Shown: positions 7,309 to 48,866 of the stretch, piece by piece | How positions within the stretch are numbered: the stretch's first letter is position 1 | Layout: every line of letters begins with the position of its first letter | Assembly (NCBI RefSeq): GCF_040438885.1 | Contig: NZ_CP159218.1 | Span: forward strand, 4,526,001-4,590,000 | Length of the DNA stretch: 64,000 bases | Direction of reading: 5' to 3' | Source: Nakamurella sp. A5-74 | GTDB taxonomy: Bacteria; Actinomycetota; Actinomycetes; Mycobacteriales; Nakamurellaceae | Translations under genes and position numbers: made by a program | The notes under the pieces: model-generated | Database searches by the model: none | The model's input: the letters and a program-made list of their open reading frames with translations, nothing else | Told to the model about the DNA's origin: nothing

Positions 7309-8328
7309 ATGCAGTACCGCACGCTCGGCCGGACCGGGGTCCAGGTCAGCGCACTGTCGCTCGGCGCTATGAACTTCGGTGCGATCGGCCAGACGACACA
7401 GCAGGACGCGACGGAAATCATCGACGCCGCGCTGGAGGCAGGTGTGAACTTCGTTGACACCGCGGACTTCTACAGCCAGGGAGAGTCCGAGGAGATGGTC
7501 GGTCGGGCCCTCGCCGGTCGGCATCAGGACGTGGTCCTGGCGACCAAGGCGTTCCTGCCGATGGGTGCCGAACGCAACCACCGCGGTTCCTCCCGCCGGT
7601 GGTTGATCAGTGCGCTGGATGCCAGCCTGAGCCGGCTGGGCGTCGATCACATTGACCTGTATCAGGTGCATCGCTGGGACCCGAGCACCACCGACGAGGA
7701 GACGCTGTCAGCGCTGACCGATCTGCAACGGGCGGGCAAGATCCGCTACTTCGGGTCCTCGACTTTCCCGGCGTACCGGATCGTGCAGGGCCAATGGGCC
7801 GCTCGTGAGCACCACCTGGGTCGGTACGTGACCGAACAGTTGAACTATTCGATCCTCAACCGCGGCGCGGAGACCGACGTGCTCCCGGTGACCGAGCAGT
7901 ACGGACTCGGGGTGCTGGTGTGGAGCCCGCTGTCCTCGGGGTGGCTCTCCGGTGCAGTACGCGCGGGCCGACAGATCGCCACCCACCGGTCGAACGTCAT
8001 GCCGCAGCGTTTCGACCTCGATGTCCCAGCGAACCGCGCGAAGCTCGACGCCGTCGAACAGATCGCTACGGTCGCAGCCGATGCCGGGTTGACGATGATC
8101 CAACTCGCCCTGGGATTCGTGACCGCCCACCCCGGCGTCACGAGCTCGATCATCGGCCCCCGCACGATGGAGCACCTCCAGTCCCAACTCGCGGCCGCCG
8201 ACACCGTGCTGTCCGCGGACGTCCTGGACGCCATCGACAAGATCGTCGCTCCCGGAGTGGATCTGTCGCCGGAGGAGAAGATGGACACCCGCCCGTCCAT
8301 CACCGACGCCTCACTCCGGCGGCGCTGA
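7309..8328 (+). CDS. Aldo-keto reductase
   Basis: This 339-aa NADPH-dependent oxidoreductase folds as a TIM barrel. The catalytic residues can be followed: Asp and Tyr in NFVDTADFYSQG (about residues 47-58), Lys in VVLATKAFLP (about 78) and His in IDLYQVHRWD (about 120). GLGVLVWSPL and the C-terminal SSIIGPRTMEHL belong to the cofactor site. The start follows GAGGAGACCTGA. It overlaps the next gene by one base (TGATG), so the two are translationally coupled. The substrate is unknown; divergence from a TetR gene suggests induction by a toxic aldehyde, ketone or xenobiotic. Confidence 0.92.
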   Translation: MQYRTLGRTGVQVSALSLGAMNFGAIGQTTQQDATEIIDAALEAGVNFVDTADFYSQGESEEMVGRALAGRHQDVVLATKAFLPMGAERNHRGSSRRWLISALDASLSRLGVDHIDLYQVHRWDPSTTDEETLSALTDLQRAGKIRYFGSSTFPAYRIVQGQWAAREHHLGRYVTEQLNYSILNRGAETDVLPVTEQYGLGVLVWSPLSSGWLSGAVRAGRQIATHRSNVMPQRFDLDVPANRAKLDAVEQIATVAADAGLTMIQLALGFVTAHPGVTSSIIGPRTMEHLQSQLAAADTVLSADVLDAIDKIVAPGVDLSPEEKMDTRPSITDASLRRR

Positions 8329-10322: not shown

Positions 10323-11012
10323 ATGGCCGTTCCGACCTTCCACGAACCCGGCAGCGACATCTACGTCGCCGCCACCGCGCCCCGCAATTCCTCCGGAACC
10401 CAGCGGCCGGCGTGGGTGGCGCGAGCGACCGACGCAGCGCAGGTCGGCGACATCGTCCGCGAGGCGGCCCGACGCGGGCTCCGGATCCTGCCGCAGGCGA
10501 CCGGACACGGAGCGGGCGGAACCGTCGGCGAGGACACGGTCCTGCTCGACACCTCCGGGCTCAGCTCGCTCACCATCGACGCAGGCGGGCACTTCGCCAC
10601 CGCCGGTGCTGGGCTCACCTGGGGTCGGGTCAACGCGGCCGCGCAGGAGCACGGCCTGCTCGGCCTGGCCGGGTCAGCTGCGAGTGTGAGCATCGCCGGC
10701 TACACCTTCGGTGGTGGTATCGGCTGGCTGTCGCGCCCGCACGGGATGGCATCGGCCGCCCTGCGGAGCGTCGACTACGTCGACGGATCCGGTGCACTGC
10801 GCAACGCCAGCGACGACGCGGCGGACGCCCTCGACCGCGCGGCGATGTTCGCCGTCCGGGGAGGCGGCGGGGTGGGGATAGCGACGGCGCTGGAGTTCGA
10901 CCTTGTGGCTGTACCCGAGCTGCACGCGGGTTACCTGCTCTGGCCGGTGGAGGACCTCGACGCGGTCGTGACCGCGTGGTCCGCAGCGATGACCGAGGTC
11001 GGGGAAGACGTG
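10323..11012 (+). pseudogene. FAD-linked oxidase, N-terminal half of a split gene
   Basis: The ATG follows a GGAGACACC ribosome binding site. About 230 codons encode the PCMH-type FAD-binding domain: PQATGHGAGG, LDTSGLSSLTID, TAGAGLTWGRVNAAAQEHGL and FGGGIGWLSRPHGM. Family homology stops after TEVGEDV at about 11012, where the frame enters unrelated DNA. The rest of the protein (TSIAVLHAPPAPPFPD onward) is found at 18055-18687 in the same orientation. Joined, the halves give about 440 aa, the usual family length. The enzyme is therefore disrupted by the intervening 7 kb. Confidence 0.9.
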
Positions 11013-11367
11013 GTCCGGCGTCGCGCGGGACGTGGCCGACCGGGCCGGCCAGACCGCCGTCGTGCGGGCCACCCGCACCGGCGAGCTCGGCCGCGGGTCG
11101 GAGCAGTTGCAGATGCTCGACACGTTCACCGTCGGAGACCAGCAACGCCTCGCTGACGGCGAATCGGTGATCATCGGCCGCGGACTTGCCCCGTTCGTCG
11201 CATACACCCGCGCCACCTACGAACAGCGCGGTTTGCGTCGCCGGATCGGGCAGGAACTTGCCACCGTCAACCGGGACCTCGCCCTCGCCCGGGCGAAGGT
11301 CGTCGACGACGCCGACTACGAACGGATGATCTCGGTGTCCGGCGGACCGATGGAGATGCAGAAATGA
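11013..11367 (+). pseudogene. C-terminal fragment of an unidentified mobile-element protein
   Basis: From the junction with the FAD gene, an open frame reads SGVARDVADRAGQTAVV and ends GGPMEMQK at 11367. It has no native start and looks like the tail of a larger protein. A GTG at 11032 could serve as a start for 111 aa. Its composition, and its ATGA overlap with the next gene, recall conjugation modules of actinobacterial integrative elements (coupling-protein type). That assignment is a weak impression, not a domain match. Confidence 0.4.
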
Positions 11368-11877
11368 GCGACCCAGATCCGCGCGGCATGCCAGTCCCCA
11401 ACCGGGGAGAGGACACCGCAACGCCGCTGGCCAACCTGGCGAAGGATGGCCGGCCGCCGTGGGCCTGGTCGAACTTGACCGACGATGAGGCCGACGAGCT
11501 GCACACGTCCCTGCTGTGGTTCGTGGCCACCTGCAACGGCGAGTACGCCGTCGAGCTGAACCACGTGATCCCTGCGTGCTGGTCTGAGCACTCTCGGCTG
11601 CGCCACGAGCTACCTGCCCTCTACTGGGCGTGGTGGGCCGCGCACCGCGACCCGACGGGATCCGCGACTGCGGCCCGACGGGTTCTACCGAGAAGTCCTC
11701 CCGGCGTTCCAGGGCCGCCTCGACCAGCTCCTCGGCGCGGGCGCGGTGGCGTGCCGCAAGGGCGACCACTTTGGCTTGGCGCCGGACGTCGCCGCCGCGA
11801 TCCGAGCCGCCGCAGACGGCACCGCCCGGCGCCTGGTCCGACCCGGTGACTGGCGGCGGGCAACGCTCGGCGCTTGA
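11364..11877 (+). pseudogene. DUF4913-like small protein, frameshifted
   Basis: The ATG overlaps the previous stop (ATGA). The first part carries a Trp-rich helical pattern (WAWSNLTDDEADELHTSLLW, ALYWAWWAAHRDP) reminiscent of DUF4913-like proteins found on actinobacterial plasmids and integrative elements. Near 11655 the frame shifts, and the natural C-terminus continues in another frame (PDGFYREVLPAFQGRLDQLL to WRRATLGA, stop at 11875-11877). The combined length of 514 bp confirms an indel. It marks the insertion as derived from conjugative DNA, with moderate confidence. Confidence 0.5.
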
Positions 11878-11956
11878 CGTCAGACGAAGCGTCGGCGAAA
11901 CATACTGTCGCTCTGCCGGTCTTCGGCGTAGCATCTGAACAACTTGGGGGTGAGTG

Positions 11957-12634
11957 ATGAAGTTCATTCGGGGGCTTGCCGCAGTTGCGCTGATCGTGGT
12001 TGCTGGTTGTTCGAACTCCGGTGCTCAACCGAGCGGTACTGCGTCTGGGTTGCAGAGCAAACCGGTAGTCACCGTCGGCACCGCCTCGACACCTTCGGCT
12101 GACGCACCGTTGTCATCGGTCAGCGTGACGGGCACCTCGGCAGCATTCACAACCGGTGGCTCCCCCTCCGCCCGAACAGACTCTGGCGACGGGGTGACCA
12201 GCGTTGTCGACGACGCTGATCTGAAGACTTTCGCGGGCACGCAGCGCGAGTACATCGACGCCTATGCAGGCTGCATGCGGGGCAAGGGTGTCCCGGTCGA
12301 CATTGCCGAGGACGGCACGATGACTTACCCCGGTCTGCCCGCCGATCAGAACACCACTCTGGAACAGGTGCAGCAGCAGTGTCTGGCGGAGGTTGGTGTC
12401 ATCCAGACCAAGGACTTCACGGACAAGCAGCTGCAGGCTTACTACGACCTGCAGCACGCACAGTGGAAGTGCCTGAGCGACAACGGTTTCTCGGTGCAAT
12501 CGGCGCAGACGTTCCAGACGTACCGAGACAGGGCACAACAGACAGGCGCTCCGGACTGGAACGTCTTCAACGGCGTCCCCGAGACGGAGGTCGGCGCCGG
12601 CCTCTCGAAGTGTCCCAACAAGATCGCTGGATGA
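11957..12634 (+). CDS. Lipoprotein of the secreted-protein/exporter island
   Basis: The start is the ATG at 11957 (a GTG lies one codon upstream), behind GGGGGTGAG. The 225-aa product has a short signal peptide with lipobox VVAGC, so it is anchored outside the membrane by a lipidated Cys. A Ser/Thr-rich linker of about 70 residues follows. The globular part contains YIDAYAGCMRGKGV, EQVQQQCLAE, WKCLSDNGF and a final KCPNKIAG, giving four Cys that may form two disulfides. Proteins with a CMRxxG motif often accompany FtsX-type ABC exporters in actinobacteria (recollection). It could be an immunity or substrate-binding component. The function is unproven. Confidence 0.8.
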   Translation: MKFIRGLAAVALIVVAGCSNSGAQPSGTASGLQSKPVVTVGTASTPSADAPLSSVSVTGTSAAFTTGGSPSARTDSGDGVTSVVDDADLKTFAGTQREYIDAYAGCMRGKGVPVDIAEDGTMTYPGLPADQNTTLEQVQQQCLAEVGVIQTKDFTDKQLQAYYDLQHAQWKCLSDNGFSVQSAQTFQTYRDRAQQTGAPDWNVFNGVPETEVGAGLSKCPNKIAG

Positions 12635-12729
12635 CGAGGACTGCACCAGGAAGGACGGTCGCCTATCAGACGCAGCTACAGGTGAGCACCAAGTCCATCA
12701 TCAGTTGCCCACAAAAGGAGTAAACAAAC

Positions 12730-13053
12730 GTGAAGAAAGCATTGCGGTCCATGGCGGTTGTCGTAGCAACCGGCGGTCTCATCCTGGCGGGGTCAGGTAT
12801 TGCCTCTGCCGCGGTGTCGAAGTCGGGGAGCAAGCTTTGTCCCGGTTCGACGACACCTCAGTCATACCTCCTGTCGCGCACGTCGGGTTCGTCGAACGGT
12901 TTCGCCCCGGGTGGTGGAAACTTCACACACAGTGACGGGGTCACCACGAATCACAAGGACTACGGTGCCCTCGGTGGCGGCGCGTGGAAGGTGACCGTGA
13001 CCGGCGGCATCCTGGACGACGCGGGAACCTACGCGGGTTGCGAACGAGCCTGA
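12730..13053 (+). CDS. Small secreted protein, bacteriocin-like candidate
   Basis: This 107-aa product begins MKKALRSMAVVVATGG and has a clear Sec signal ending GIASA-AV, leaving about 80 residues. The mature part is Gly/Ser/Thr-rich, has only two Cys (KLCPG near its start and AGCERA at the end) and contains the patterns FAPGGGNFTHSDG and GALGGGAWKVTVTGG. A ribosome binding site AAGGAG precedes the ATG. It recalls lactococcin-972-type peptides in size and in its GGG-W patch, but the family signature is not clearly there, so no family is claimed. A strong hairpin follows the gene, and the exporter genes lie immediately downstream. Confidence 0.75.
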   Translation: MKKALRSMAVVVATGGLILAGSGIASAAVSKSGSKLCPGSTTPQSYLLSRTSGSSNGFAPGGGNFTHSDGVTTNHKDYGALGGGAWKVTVTGGILDDAGTYAGCERA

Positions 13054-13069
13054 TCTTCAGACTAACCGA

Positions 13070-14203
13070 GTGAACGGGGCGGCGCCGGGAGGCGTCGCCC
13101 CGTCCCATTGCGCAGAGAGGAAACCCGTCATCGCCGCGGATCAGTCGGGACCACGTCGCTATCGAGCCGTCATCGGCTGGCTAGCGCTCACGCTGGCGGT
13201 GGGTGGTGCCGCGTTCTGGGCCGGGACCACGGTCAGCCGGCCGGAAGTCGACCCCCTCGATCAGCCGACCGCGTCGCTGTACACGGTGGTAGCCGGTCAG
13301 GTCGGACGCGCCGTGGACGTCTCGGTGACGGTGTCCTGGCCGTCCGGGCGACCGGTGGTATCAGCTGCGACGGGAACAGTCACCACCGTCAATGTGCGGT
13401 CAGGGGAGATGGTGAAGGCGGGGGATCAGCTGGTCTCCGTCGATCTGCAGCCATCCTTCGCTGCGGTCGGCACCGTGCCCGCGTTCCGCGACATCGGCCC
13501 GGGAGTTCGAGGTGCCGACGTCGAGCAGTTGCAGCAGATGCTGAACACCCTCGGCTATCCGGTCACGGTCACCGGAGTGCACGACGCTCCGTCCATGGCG
13601 GCCGCGCGCCGCTGGCAGAAAGCCGTCGGCATCCCAGGGAACGGGATCGTGCGTCGAGGTCAGGTGACCTTCACGCCGACCTTGCCGGTGCGGATAGTAG
13701 TACCCGAAGACCTCACTGTCGGCTCGCAGGTGTCCGCGGGCTCACCGGTGGCCACGATCGTCACCGGCGAGCCGAAGTTCACCATTGCGCTGGCCAGCCA
13801 GCAGACCGCGCTCATCCCGCAGGACGGGCAGGTGCTGATCAAGCACGGAGCCACGACCTGGGAAGGGGTGGTTTCCAGTTCCGCGGAGGACCGAGAGAAC
13901 GGCGGGGTGCTCTGGACGGTCACCGACAAGGCCGGGAAGCCGGTGTGCGGATCGGACTGTGACAGCTTGCCGGTGCCCGGACCCACGACGGTGCAGGGCT
14001 CGGTGGTGGTTGTTCCGCCCACGCAGGGACCGGTGGTGCCGGTCGCGAGCATCCTCGGTGGCCCGGCCGGATCAGCTGCCGTGGTCCTGGCCGACGGCAC
14101 CCAGCGCGCCGTCACCGTGCTCGCCACCAGCGGCGGACTGTCGGTCGTCACCGGTATCAACCCGGGGCAGCAGATCCAGCTGTTCGGCGACACCGGATCA
14201 TGA
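13070..14203 (+). CDS. Membrane-fusion adaptor with peptidoglycan-binding domain (MacA-like)
   Basis: The protein has one N-terminal membrane helix (VIGWLALTLAVGGAAFWAG), then a biotinyl-lipoyl-like segment (TGTVTTVNVRSGEMVKAGDQL). A peptidoglycan-binding type 1 repeat follows (GVRGADVEQLQQMLNTLGY to AARRWQKAVGIPGNG), then a beta-barrel region ending GINPGQQIQLFGDTGS. This is the adaptor of an adaptor/ATPase/FtsX export machine facing the cell wall. The only standard start that keeps the membrane helix is a GTG at 13070, which lies at the foot of a hairpin. A good GAGAGGAAA site at 13115-13123 instead points to GTC 13127 or ATC 13130, so the start is uncertain. The next gene begins 47 bp later. 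Confidence 0.85.
   Translation: MNGAAPGGVAPSHCAERKPVIAADQSGPRRYRAVIGWLALTLAVGGAAFWAGTTVSRPEVDPLDQPTASLYTVVAGQVGRAVDVSVTVSWPSGRPVVSAATGTVTTVNVRSGEMVKAGDQLVSVDLQPSFAAVGTVPAFRDIGPGVRGADVEQLQQMLNTLGYPVTVTGVHDAPSMAAARRWQKAVGIPGNGIVRRGQVTFTPTLPVRIVVPEDLTVGSQVSAGSPVATIVTGEPKFTIALASQQTALIPQDGQVLIKHGATTWEGVVSSSAEDRENGGVLWTVTDKAGKPVCGSDCDSLPVPGPTTVQGSVVVVPPTQGPVVPVASILGGPAGSAAVVLADGTQRAVTVLATSGGLSVVTGINPGQQIQLFGDTGS
13074..13103 (+). terminator. Hairpin between secreted protein and exporter operon
   Basis: ACGGGGCGGCGCC (13074-13086) pairs with GGCGTCGCCCCGT (13091-13103) across a GGGA loop, 12 of 13 positions as Watson-Crick pairs. There is no T-run. It lies 20 bp after the stop of the secreted protein, where it would terminate or attenuate transcription into the exporter genes and give a high peptide-to-exporter ratio. 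Confidence 0.6.
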
Positions 14204-14249
14204 CCTGCCCGAGCATCAGCAGGATCGATCCCACCGTCCGGGCGGCGCC

Positions 14250-14909
14250 GTGATCGAGCAGACGCCCGTCGAAGTCCGCGGTCTCACCTTCCGCTACCGA
14301 CGCCGCCAGGCGCCGACGCTCACCGACGTCCAGCACGCGTTCGAACCCGGATGCGTCACCGCGATCACCGGCCCATCCGGCGGCGGCAAGTCGACCCTGT
14401 TGTATCTGATCGGGTTGCTCCTCGCGCCGGAGAGCGGCGCCATCGTCGTCGGTGGCGCCGCAGTGGTCGGATCCGATCGCGAACGCAGCCGGATCCGTTC
14501 CAGGACCATGGGTTTCGTGTTCCAGGACGCCATGCTGGACCCGTCCCGGACTGTGCTGGCGAACGTGATGGAGGGCGCCGTCTACACGGGCATGGCCGCC
14601 GATATCCGCGCCTCACGCTCCCGTGCCTTGCTGGACGAACTCGGTATCGCACATCGAGCCGACCACCGGCCCGGAGAGATCTCCGGCGGGCAGGCGCAAC
14701 GGGTTGCGCTGTGCCGGGCACTGGTCAAATCACCGCCGGTGATCCTGGCTGACGAACCGACCGGCAACCTTGATCCCGACGCAGCCGACCTCGTGTGGCG
14801 CCTCCTGGTCGCGCAGGCACGAGCAGGGTGCACCGTGATCGTCGCGACCCACGATCGCGGCCGCGCCCTTGCCTGCGATCGCCACCTGGACCTGGCAATG
14901 ACATCGTGA
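14250..14909 (+). CDS. ABC transporter ATP-binding protein (MacB/LolD type)
   Basis: This 219-aa nucleotide-binding subunit starts at the GTG at 14250. All motifs are present: Walker [11 protein letters not shown]-loop GFVFQDAML, signature [15 protein letters not shown], Walker [15 protein letters not shown] and the switch His in VIVATHD. It powers the permease encoded next, whose GTG start overlaps the stop (GTGA). With the adaptor upstream it forms a three-gene exporter of the MacAB layout. The substrate is most simply the secreted protein or related peptides (inference from adjacency). Confidence 0.93.
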
Positions 14910-16069
14910 GCACCCACCGGCAACTCGCCGGCGAGCCCCGCCCCACGACTCTGCTTCGTGAGGGCATCGCGGTGACCAGATCCGCGCTCGGAGCCAGCAT
15001 CACCCTCGCTGTCATCGTGGCTGGGCTATGCGTCGCGGTGTTCGCCACCGCCGGCCGCGCAGCAGCAGCCGAACGCCAGGTCGCCGACCGCATCGAACAG
15101 ACCGGCACCCGGCTGATCACCGTGCAGTACACCGCGCCGACCGGCACCTTCGATCCCCAGCTGGTCGACCGCGCGGCAGCGCTGACCCAGGTGTCCTGGG
15201 CCTTCGGCCTCGGACCGGCCAGCGACGCCGGCCTGGCACTGATGGACGGCCAGGGACGCGCCGTGCCCGCCCGCAGCGTCCACGGATCCCCGCCGCCGGA
15301 CCTACCGGTGACCGTGGGCCGCTGGCCCGCACCGGGGGAGGCTGTCGTGACCCCCACCAGCCAGCTCAGCACCGGACTCATCAACCCCGCCGGCGCCATC
15401 CTCTACCGGGACCAGCCAGTGGCCGTCGTCGGCCAGGTCGACCCCATCGGCACCCTGACCGCCCTCGCGCCGTACATCCTCGTCAACCCCGCCCGCATCG
15501 GGCCGCCGGGCACCACAGACGGCACCATCGCAGGCGACGACACCACCGGCATCACCACCCTCTACGTCCTGGCAGACCGAGCCGCCAACGTGCTCGCCGT
15601 CCAGGACAGCCTCCAACAGCTCACCGGCACCGACGACACCACCACGTTCACGATCACGGCCTCCCAGACACTGGCAGACCTCGGCATCGCCATCAGCGGA
15701 GAGCTCGGCACAGCCGGTCGAGCACAAGCGATCGGCGTTCTCGGCGCGGGTGTTCTCATCATTGCCCTGTCTACCTACGCAGCTGTCTCGAGCCGCAAAC
15801 GAGACTTCGGTAGGCGCCGGGCCCTCGGCGCCAGCAGAGGCGCCATCATCGGCCTTGTCCTCACCCAGGTAGCGATACCCGCGTTGGCCGGCGCCGTCCT
15901 CGGCACTGGAGCTGGGTGGCTCGTCACCCGCGTCATCGGCGCAACTCCCGGCTGGCAATTCGCGCTCGCCGTCGCCGTCCTCGCCGTCACCGCTGCCCTC
16001 GCCGCCGCCGTCCCCGTCTCCTGGGCTGCAGCACGCCGGGATCCAGTCCGAATTCTCCGAATCCCTTGA
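14906..16069 (+). CDS. FtsX-like ABC transporter permease
   Basis: This 387-aa membrane protein has the FtsX/MacB topology. One helix lies near residues 27-49 ([21 protein letters not shown]), a large extracellular domain of about 220 residues follows, then three C-terminal helices ([59 protein letters not shown]). [14 protein letters not shown] is the conserved cytoplasmic coupling segment. The start codon overlaps the ATPase stop. It completes the adaptor/ATPase/permease exporter. No second permease is encoded, so it would work as a homodimer. Confidence 0.9.
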
Positions 16070-16300
16070 CCCACACGGTCTACTGGGACGTCTTGATGAC
16101 ATTCCAACGTCGCTCAACGGGGGTCACCTCGGCGGTGAGCGTCAACCTAGAGAACAGCTCCCTGCTCAATCGCGGTCGCCATATGACACCACCCGAAGAT
16201 GACCGCGTCCCGGCATCCGAGGATCCTGAGGCAGGACGGTCCATACCTCGCTGCTGGTCTCAATCGGCTGCTCGGAGGCAGGAAGCTGGTCTGTAAAGAG
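16070..16300. other. Intergenic DNA between permease gene and IS3 end
   Basis: No gene, terminator or repeat can be supported in these 231 bp. The stretch separates the exporter operon from the left end of the IS3-type remnant. Confidence 0.5.
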
Positions 16301-16342
16301 TGAACCGTCCTGAGTCTCCTGGCGGGTGCTGATTCAGCAAGG

Positions 16343-16676
16343 GTGACTGATCCGATGGCGGCACTGAGGAAGTTCAACGATGAGATGGTAGACAGGGCGG
16401 TCCGCATGTATCGGGACCGGCTCGAGCAGGCCGGGCGTCCAAGCTGGCGGCCAGGAAGCACGTCGGGTCGCTGCTGGACATCAACCCGGCGACGATCCGC
16501 AACTGGATCGAGGCACAGGAGCGCGCTGTTGGTACGCGTGCTGATGATGCGAGAGTGGTCGAGTCGCAGGAGATCCGGGACCTGAAGCGTGAGAACGCGG
16601 AGTTACGTCGCGCGAATGAGATCCTGAAGACAGAATCAGCGTTTTTCGCCGCGGCGGAGCTCGACCGCCGACTCAA

Positions 16677-16680
<4 letters not shown>
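16343..16680 (+). pseudogene. IS3 orfA, frameshifted
   Basis: The ATG at 16355, or a GTG at 16343, opens MAALRKFNDEMVDRAVRMY. After LEQAG the frame shifts, and the true sequence continues KLAARKHVGSLLDINPATIR and RDLKRENAELRRANEILK to a TGA at 16678-16680. This is the helix-turn-helix and leucine-zipper protein of an IS3 element. It cannot be made intact without frameshifting. Confidence 0.85.
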
Positions 16681-17895
<1,215 letters not shown>

Positions 17896-18052
17896 TGCCG
17901 TCGGTGTCGACGGCGCCGGCCAGCCGTCCGGCGACGCGGGCTTCCTCGACCTCGTCATCCTGGATGTGCGCCGACCAGGGCACGTGCGTCTCGGTGATCA
18001 GGTCGAGTCCTTCGGCCTGGATCGGCGGCGGCGCGTTGCTGCTGCTCGTGCT
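17896..18052 (-). other. Unidentified gene fragment, minus strand
   Basis: Between the truncated IS30 and the second half of the FAD gene, one minus-strand frame has protein-like composition: IQAEGLDLITETHVPWSAHI, then EEARVAGRLAGAVDTDGRFW. It has neither start nor stop of its own and is cut at both ends. It probably belongs to the same foreign element as the fragment at 11013-11367. No family is recognised. Confidence 0.35.
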
Positions 18053-18054
18053 CC

Positions 18055-18687
18055 ACCAGCATCGCGGTGCTGCACGCCCCGCCTGCACCGCCGTTCCCGG
18101 ATTCGCTGCGCGGCACGACGGTCCTGCACCTGGCGGTCGCCGCAAGCCGCGGCGCCGCCGGCGCGCGGCCGTTGCTCGACGCAGTCCGCGCTGCCGCTGT
18201 TCCGGCCGTCGACACGTGGGGAGCGTCGGATGCGGCTCGGCTCGCGCAGATCCATCTGGATCCCCCGAGCGCCACTCCGGCACTCGGTGACGCCCGCTGG
18301 CTCACCGCCGGCACGCCCGGGCGTGCGGGCGACATCCTGTCCACGGCAGTGGCCGACGATTCACCCGTGGTGATGCTGGAGATCCGCGGTGTCGGCAGCG
18401 ACGCCGCTGCGCGACCCGGCGCACAGACCACCGGTGCGGGCCCGTTCATCGTGCACGGCGTCGCCCCGCTGCGGGCACCCGAGGCGCGGCCGGGTATCGC
18501 GCACGCCTTCGACGAACTACGCCGCATCGTCGAACCGGTCGATGCGGGGTACAGCGTCGGATCCTGGGTGGAGGGGGCGACCTCGGTCCCTGACGCCCTG
18601 CCCGTTCCGATCCGGCGACAGGTCGCGGCCACCGCCGACGCGGTGGACCCGACCGGCATCATCCACCGGTATCGCTTCCTGACCTGA
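18055..18687 (+). pseudogene. FAD-linked oxidase, C-terminal half of a split gene
   Basis: From ACC at 18055 the frame reads TSIAVLHAPPAPPFPDSLRG and continues as the substrate-binding and C-terminal part of PCMH-type FAD oxidases, ending [16 protein letters not shown]. The final HRYRF-type ending is typical of these enzymes. It fits residue-for-residue after TEVGEDV at 11012, so both halves belong to one interrupted gene. A GTG at 18067 could express a fragment, but without the FAD domain it would be inactive. Confidence 0.9.
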
Positions 18688-48693: not shown

Positions 48694-48866
48694 CTTCGTT
48701 CGCCCGATCAGCAAAAGATCAACACTGGTCGAGCTTCGTTCGCTCGATCGGCAAGACATCAACGCTGGTCGAGCGAGGAACGAATCGAGACCCATCAGAT
48801 CCGAGACCGGTGTGACACGACGGGATCTCGACTCACTTCGTTCGCTCGATCGGCAAGAGTCGCTGG
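48694..48866. repeat. Three copies of a TTCGTTCGCTCGATCGGCAAGA-like repeat
   Basis: Copies start near 48695, 48733 and 48837. Each contains CTTCGTTCG, then C(T/C)CGATC(G/A)GCAA, and each is near a CTGGTCGAG or CTGGTGCCGAG string. The repeat lies between an IS3 remnant and the ABC exporter genes and partly overlaps neither. It looks like a dispersed palindromic intergenic repeat (TCGAGCGAACGAAG type). Confidence 0.6.

What the first reader, a model, noticed from the sequence alone, without database searches (positions are those of the whole stretch)
11957..16069. Candidate secreted-protein system: lipoprotein, small two-Cys secreted protein and its own MacAB/FtsX-like exporter
Five plus-strand genes lie together on foreign DNA: a Cys-rich lipoprotein (lipobox VVAGC, CMRGKG motif), an 80-residue mature secreted protein with two Cys, a strong hairpin, then an adaptor with a peptidoglycan-binding domain, an ABC ATPase and an FtsX permease, the last two overlapping. 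Dedicated exporters beside a small secreted protein are typical of bacteriocin or peptide-toxin loci, with the lipoprotein as a plausible immunity factor. The small protein has a Sec signal, so the exporter may instead protect against or clear the peptide. I recognise no described family for the secreted protein.
Basis: partly seen in the sequence, partly recalled or inferred. Interest (0 to 1): 0.78.

Follow-up and report, generated by a model that had tools for sequence, protein, structure and literature searches.

The report
Undescribed bacteriocin-like operon in Actinobacteria
A soil actinobacterium carries, on an inserted piece of foreign DNA, a five-gene set that recurs in many other actinobacteria: a small secreted protein with one cysteine near each end, a partner surface lipoprotein and a three-part transporter, which together look like an undescribed bacterial toxin with its own protection system.

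Summary
The five genes at 11957-16069 sit on a 7.05-kb insertion that splits an FAD-oxidase gene. The same unit (small Sec-type secreted protein, lipoprotein, peptidoglycan-binding adaptor, ATPase, FtsX permease) occurs in at least 19 loci of distant Actinomycetes, in shuffled orders, with no other recurring neighbour. The secreted proteins share only about 20% identity, yet all 19 have 76-88 mature residues and exactly two Cys, one near each end. Among 22 loci found through the adaptor alone, 14 have an intact secreted gene, 2 a broken one, 6 none; all 22 have the lipoprotein (split in one). One locus has two secreted/lipoprotein pairs and a single exporter. Divergence of the secreted protein tracks the lipoprotein beyond the adaptor. 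Neither protein matches Pfam or NCBIfam; mature-part homology to lactococcin 972 was not found. Best reading: a Sec-exported bacteriocin-like toxin with the lipoprotein as cognate immunity protein and the tripartite transporter protecting the producer (works like NisI/NisFEG, or YknWXYZ against SdpC). Toxicity and immunity are inferred, not shown. A broader lipoprotein-exporter cassette is common without the small protein, so a general detoxification module is the main rival.

The parts
10998..18045 (.). Inserted DNA (about 7.05 kb) splitting an FAD-linked oxidase gene; carries the operon and IS remnants
   Evidence: tblastn of intact homologues: blocks 10386-10997 and 18046-18666, adjacent in the homologue
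11957..12634 (+). Lipoprotein, proposed cognate immunity protein; lipobox VVAGC, four further invariant Cys in the mature domain
   Evidence: present beside the adaptor in 22 of 22 close loci found through the adaptor
12730..13053 (+). Small secreted protein, proposed toxin; signal 12730-12810, mature 80 aa with Cys at mature positions 10 and 77
   Evidence: 19 intact homologues with the same two-Cys pattern beside the same genes
13074..13103 (+). GC hairpin (13-bp stem, no T run) between secreted gene and adaptor; possible attenuator or mRNA stabiliser
   Evidence: z -3.8; similar hairpin in N. lactea
13070..14203 (+). HlyD/MacA-like adaptor with PG_binding_1 domain; start codon uncertain
14250..14909 (+). 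ABC ATPase
   Evidence: best models FtsE, LolD, L_ocin_972_ABC, all below curated cut-offs
14906..16069 (+). FtsX/MacB-type permease, overlapping the ATPase by 4 nt
16638..17461 (+). IS3-type transposase remnant with ALIL frameshift element (16638-16769)
17356..17997 (+). IS30-like transposase fragment (HTH_38)
   Evidence: IS30 assignment is from general knowledge of HTH_38

Best explanation
A bacteriocin-like toxin operon. The small protein is made with a Sec signal, exported by the general secretory route, and folds into a small domain closed by a disulfide between mature Cys10 and Cys77. It acts on the envelope of related bacteria. The membrane-anchored lipoprotein binds and neutralises its own toxin at the cell surface. 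The adaptor-ATPase-permease machine, held to the wall through the peptidoglycan-binding domain, removes toxin from the membrane or its target, possibly handed over by the lipoprotein. Shown: gene content, recurrence, two-Cys pattern, pairing, gene-loss pattern, insertion. Inferred: disulfide, toxicity, target, neutralisation, direction of transport.
For: Same unit in at least 19 loci with shuffled gene orders and no other recurring gene. 14 of 22 loci found through the adaptor alone have an intact secreted gene. Invariant end-cysteine pattern at 20% identity. Two secreted/lipoprotein pairs sharing one exporter in G541; three tandem secreted genes in G432. Secreted gene lost, truncated or frameshifted while lipoprotein and exporter remain, as expected if immunity outlives the toxin. 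Partial correlation of secreted with lipoprotein distances given the adaptor r 0.35, p 0.001; with adaptor given lipoprotein r 0.14, p 0.10. Fast-evolving pair, conserved pump (20 and 25% against 37%). Mobile DNA context. Working analogues: NisI/NisFEG (PMC8538875), YknWXYZ against SDP (PMC4887032), Sec-exported mediterrocin beside an ABC ATPase (PMC12345188).
Against: No activity, binding or expression data. Between the window and N. lactea the secreted protein is under purifying selection (pN/pS 0.19), with no sign of rapid change. The lipoprotein-exporter cassette is common without the small protein. One secreted/lipoprotein pair lies apart from an exporter. Structure models are too weak to help.
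Confidence: 0.6

Rival explanations
1. The lipoprotein-adaptor-ATPase-permease set is a general envelope-stress or antimicrobial-peptide detoxification module, and the small protein is an accessory part (decoy or extracellular sensor feeding the pump), not a toxin.
For: A related four-gene cassette without a detected small protein is widespread, often beside a two-component system in Streptomyces; 6 of 22 close loci lack the small gene.
Against: Small protein duplicates with its own lipoprotein and decays while the rest stays; a decoy or sensor of a conserved pump would be expected to be less divergent than the pump, but it is the most divergent part.
Confidence: 0.22
2. The small protein is a signal or cell-surface structural protein that the tripartite transporter helps to release through the wall; the lipoprotein is a chaperone.
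For: Tight gene linkage in most loci; the peptidoglycan-binding domain on the adaptor would suit passage through the wall.
Against: Every member has a Sec-like signal; in mediterrocin loci the same Sec-plus-ABC arrangement is read as Sec-dependent secretion (PMC12345188); in G012 the pair lies apart from the exporter. Sequence divergence to 20% is unusual for a shared signal.
Confidence: 0.12
3. The linkage is accidental: unrelated small secreted genes near a common exporter.
For: Low sequence identity among the small proteins.
Against: 9 of 11 independently found close loci against 0 of 11 distant ones, Fisher p 2e-4 (control partly biased because the profile was built from close loci); invariant size and cysteine pattern.
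Confidence: 0.03

Closest known systems
Lactococcin 972 family (PF09683; Lcn972, mediterrocin) with DUF1430 protein and ABC ATPase
   Same: Unmodified, Sec-exported small protein of similar size beside an ABC ATPase; ATPase scores 147 bits with the L_ocin_972_ABC model, below its cut-off
   Different: No PF09683 or other family match, profile comparison aligns signal peptides only; two inspected actinobacterial Lcn972 loci (L050, L051) have a roughly 690-aa membrane protein plus ATPase and no adaptor or lipoprotein; cysteines sit at different places
YknWXYZ of Bacillus (protection against the SDP toxin)
   Same: Adaptor, separate ATPase and FtsX/MacB-type permease in a Gram-positive cell, protecting against a secreted toxin with one disulfide (PMC4887032)
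   Different: Here the adaptor has a peptidoglycan-binding domain, a lipoprotein partner is constant, and the proposed toxin is encoded in the same locus; no YknW counterpart was looked for
NisI plus NisFEG (nisin immunity)
   Same: A toxin-binding lipoprotein working with an ABC transporter (PMC8538875)
   Different: Toxin is not a lanthipeptide here (no modification genes recur); transporter type and lipoprotein sequence differ
Streptomyces-type lipoprotein/peptidoglycan-binding adaptor/ATPase/permease cassettes (unnamed)
   Same: Same four components and usually the same order; lipoprotein detectable by profile in 10 of 11
   Different: Separate adaptor score group (E 1e-37 and weaker against 1e-90 and better), no small two-Cys protein found, a two-component system beside the two plasmid loci whose annotation was read

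Membership tests
Lactococcin 972 family | Match to PF09683 or the NCBIfam bacteriocin model | tested here: not met
   No match for any of 23 members at E 0.1; hhalign with four Lcn972 sequences aligns only the signal peptide
Lactococcin 972 family | Neighbouring DUF1430-type membrane protein | tested here: not met
   Permease is FtsX type; only lipoprotein, adaptor, ATPase, permease recur
Lactococcin 972 family | Sec signal and small unmodified mature protein | tested here: met
   Script and inspection, 19 members; SignalP not available; absence of modification inferred from absence of modification genes
Lactococcin 972 family | Binding to lipid II and septum inhibition | not testable with these tools
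   Needs assays
MacAB/YknXYZ-type tripartite exporters | HlyD/MacA-like adaptor, separate ABC ATPase, FtsX/MacB permease | tested here: met
   (HlyD_3 21.2 bits, just under its 22.2 cut-off; ABC_tran and FtsX well over)
YknWXYZ system | YknW (Yip1-family) fourth component | not tested
   No other gene recurs at the loci, but the genome was not searched for YknW
NisI-type immunity | Homology of the lipoprotein to NisI/SpaI | tested here: inconclusive
   No Pfam or NCBIfam match; fold search uninformative at low model confidence
Bacteriocins in general | Demonstrated killing of related bacteria and specific self-protection | not testable with these tools
   Needs assays

The most novel reading that the evidence does not exclude
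A previously undescribed, widespread class of Sec-exported, end-to-end disulfide-closed bacteriocins of Actinomycetes, each with a cognate four-Cys lipoprotein immunity protein and sharing a wall-anchored tripartite protection pump; the same pump and lipoprotein families without toxin would then be a large reservoir of toxin resistance in Streptomyces and relatives.
Probability: 0.5. Interest if true: 0.78.

Novelty: new variant of a known kind. Interest (0 to 1): 0.62.

Why it matters
It would add a family of unmodified, genetically simple bacteriocin candidates with built-in immunity genes in a phylum known for antibiotics. It also gives a testable role to a common but unnamed lipoprotein/peptidoglycan-binding adaptor/ABC cassette of actinobacteria: protection against secreted proteins of rivals.

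Tried and rejected
Lactococcin 972 membership: not supported by family models or profile comparison. Solved-structure search with the secreted profile: nothing below E 0.1. Structure prediction of the small protein: pLDDT 42, not searched further. Lipoprotein model: pLDDT about 60-80 over residues 90-200, whole-model mean 54; no credible fold match (best Foldseek E 0.38, VIA Z 4.7), inconclusive. Plasmid and phage tblastn with secreted protein, lipoprotein and adaptor: only the Clavibacter plasmid is a close locus. Anti-phage defence library: only generic ATPase hits. No recognisable sigma-70 promoter; terminator-like sites no more than chance. No direct repeats flank the insertion clearly. 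Literature: no paper found describing this unit, but only open-access text was searched. Signal peptides were judged by a simple script and by eye, not by SignalP. Secreted-profile hits in L068-L070 and other weak hits were set aside as signal-peptide or unrelated matches; not all weak hits were inspected.

Full report
Observation. The lipoprotein (11957-12634) has a lipobox VVAGC and a CMRGKG motif. The secreted protein (12730-13053, GTG start, AAGGAG ribosome-binding site) has a Sec-like signal and an 80-residue mature part with Cys at mature positions 10 and 77. The adaptor has a peptidoglycan-binding domain over the Pfam cut-off; the ATPase and FtsX permease are clear and overlap by 4 nt. 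A 13-bp GC hairpin lies at 13074-13103, and a similar one is at the same place in Nakamurella lactea. The adaptor start is uncertain, because the N. lactea GTG start corresponds to GTC here.

Foreign DNA. Intact FAD-linked oxidases from genus relatives align to the window in two blocks, 10386-10997 and 18046-18666. These blocks are adjacent in the homologues (residue 249|250 in L072), so about 7.05 kb was inserted. The insert carries the operon plus IS3- and IS30-like remnants. In N. lactea the same operon (85% identity for the secreted protein) lies between an IS21-type transposase pair and an unrelated ATPase gene, so the cassette has moved.

The system elsewhere. The secreted protein and the lipoprotein match nothing over threshold in Pfam, NCBIfam or PADLOC. 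The window genome and N. lactea share the full locus. Profile searches found the small protein beside the same lipoprotein and exporter in G193, G327 and G432. A Clavibacter plasmid found through the adaptor has the same set, with the adaptor, secreted and lipoprotein genes unannotated. An adaptor profile over 395 class genomes gave two separate groups: adaptors at E about 1e-90 or better (12 places including the window) and a broad Streptomyces-like group at 1e-37 and weaker. All inspected loci of the close group have the lipoprotein, and many have the small protein.

Independent test. In 120 genomes of one family the adaptor profile found 12 close adaptors. Eleven of these loci had not been seen before: the lipoprotein is in 11 of 11 (split in one) and the small protein in 9 of 11. 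A separate search with the small-protein profile over the same genomes gave as its clearest hits G471, G733, G713 and G703, all within 4 kb of such adaptors; the other weak hits that were inspected were false. Distant cassettes gave 0 of 11, Fisher p = 2e-4. This control is partly biased, since a very different small protein near distant cassettes would be missed. Counting all 22 close loci found through the adaptor rather than the small protein: 14 intact, 2 broken, 6 absent, lipoprotein in all.

Anatomy of the family. Nineteen intact secreted proteins average 20% pairwise identity. Every one has 76-88 mature residues and exactly two Cys, one 6-16 residues from the mature start and one 0-7 residues from the end. 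The adaptor and permease average 37%, the lipoprotein 25%. The lipoprotein has four conserved mature Cys (alignment). Gene order is shuffled among loci, and no other gene recurs.

Pairing and loss. In G541 two secreted proteins each sit beside their own lipoprotein, with one exporter. G432 has three tandem secreted genes. G012 has a pair away from its exporter. In G327 one locus keeps only a C-terminal fragment of a secreted gene between a tRNA-Ser gene and the lipoprotein, and G467 has a frameshifted copy. The window genome has a decayed second fragment at 2.81 Mb. Distances among secreted proteins correlate with those of lipoproteins after correction for the adaptor (r 0.35, p 0.001), whereas the reverse correction leaves r 0.14, p 0.10. 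Nineteen loci is a modest number, and alignment noise at 20% identity limits this test.

Mechanism. The pattern (fast-diverging small secreted protein, cognate lipoprotein, shared pump, loss of the small gene with the rest kept, mobile DNA) is what a toxin with immunity would give. The closest working analogues are NisI plus NisFEG (PMC8538875) for lipoprotein plus pump, YknWXYZ against the SDP toxin (PMC4887032) for a tripartite FtsX-type pump in a Gram-positive cell, and mediterrocin/Lcn972 (PMC12345188) for an unmodified Sec-exported bacteriocin beside an ABC ATPase. Sequence and profile tests do not make it a lactococcin 972 member, and the neighbouring genes differ. Toxicity, the target, binding by the lipoprotein and the direction of pumping are inferences.

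Main rival. Because the lipoprotein-adaptor-ATPase-permease cassette is common without the small protein, it may be a general detoxification module with the small protein as an accessory. Loss, duplication and divergence patterns favour the toxin reading, but only assays can decide.

Noticed in passing
window 10386-10997 and 18046-18687: Two halves of one FAD-linked oxidase gene, split by the insertion; intact homologues in genus relatives are unbroken.
   Followed up: yes
window genome C1:2811859-2812023 (L026 about 7881-8033): Decayed fragment of a second copy of the secreted protein, 1.7 Mb away, with no exporter of this type nearby.
   Followed up: partly
L018 (Clavibacter plasmid NZ_CP083440.1) 5767-9901: Full set on a mobilizable plasmid; the adaptor, secreted and lipoprotein genes are missing from the distributed annotation.
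   Followed up: yes
L030 7600-7911: A C-terminal remnant of a secreted gene lies directly between a tRNA-Ser gene and the lipoprotein, suggesting an element boundary at the tRNA.
   Followed up: partly
L019 and L020 (Streptomyces plasmids): Related lipoprotein/adaptor/ATPase/permease cassettes beside a two-component system; the lipoprotein is annotated only as hypothetical.
   Followed up: no
window 13127-13129: The codon matching the adaptor's GTG start in N. lactea is GTC, so the adaptor start here has shifted or translation is reduced.
   Followed up: no
window 16638-16769: ALIL frameshift pseudoknot of an IS3-type element, the only Rfam match in the window.
   Followed up: yes
window 48694-48774: Two copies of a 40-base direct repeat, 87% matching.
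   Followed up: no
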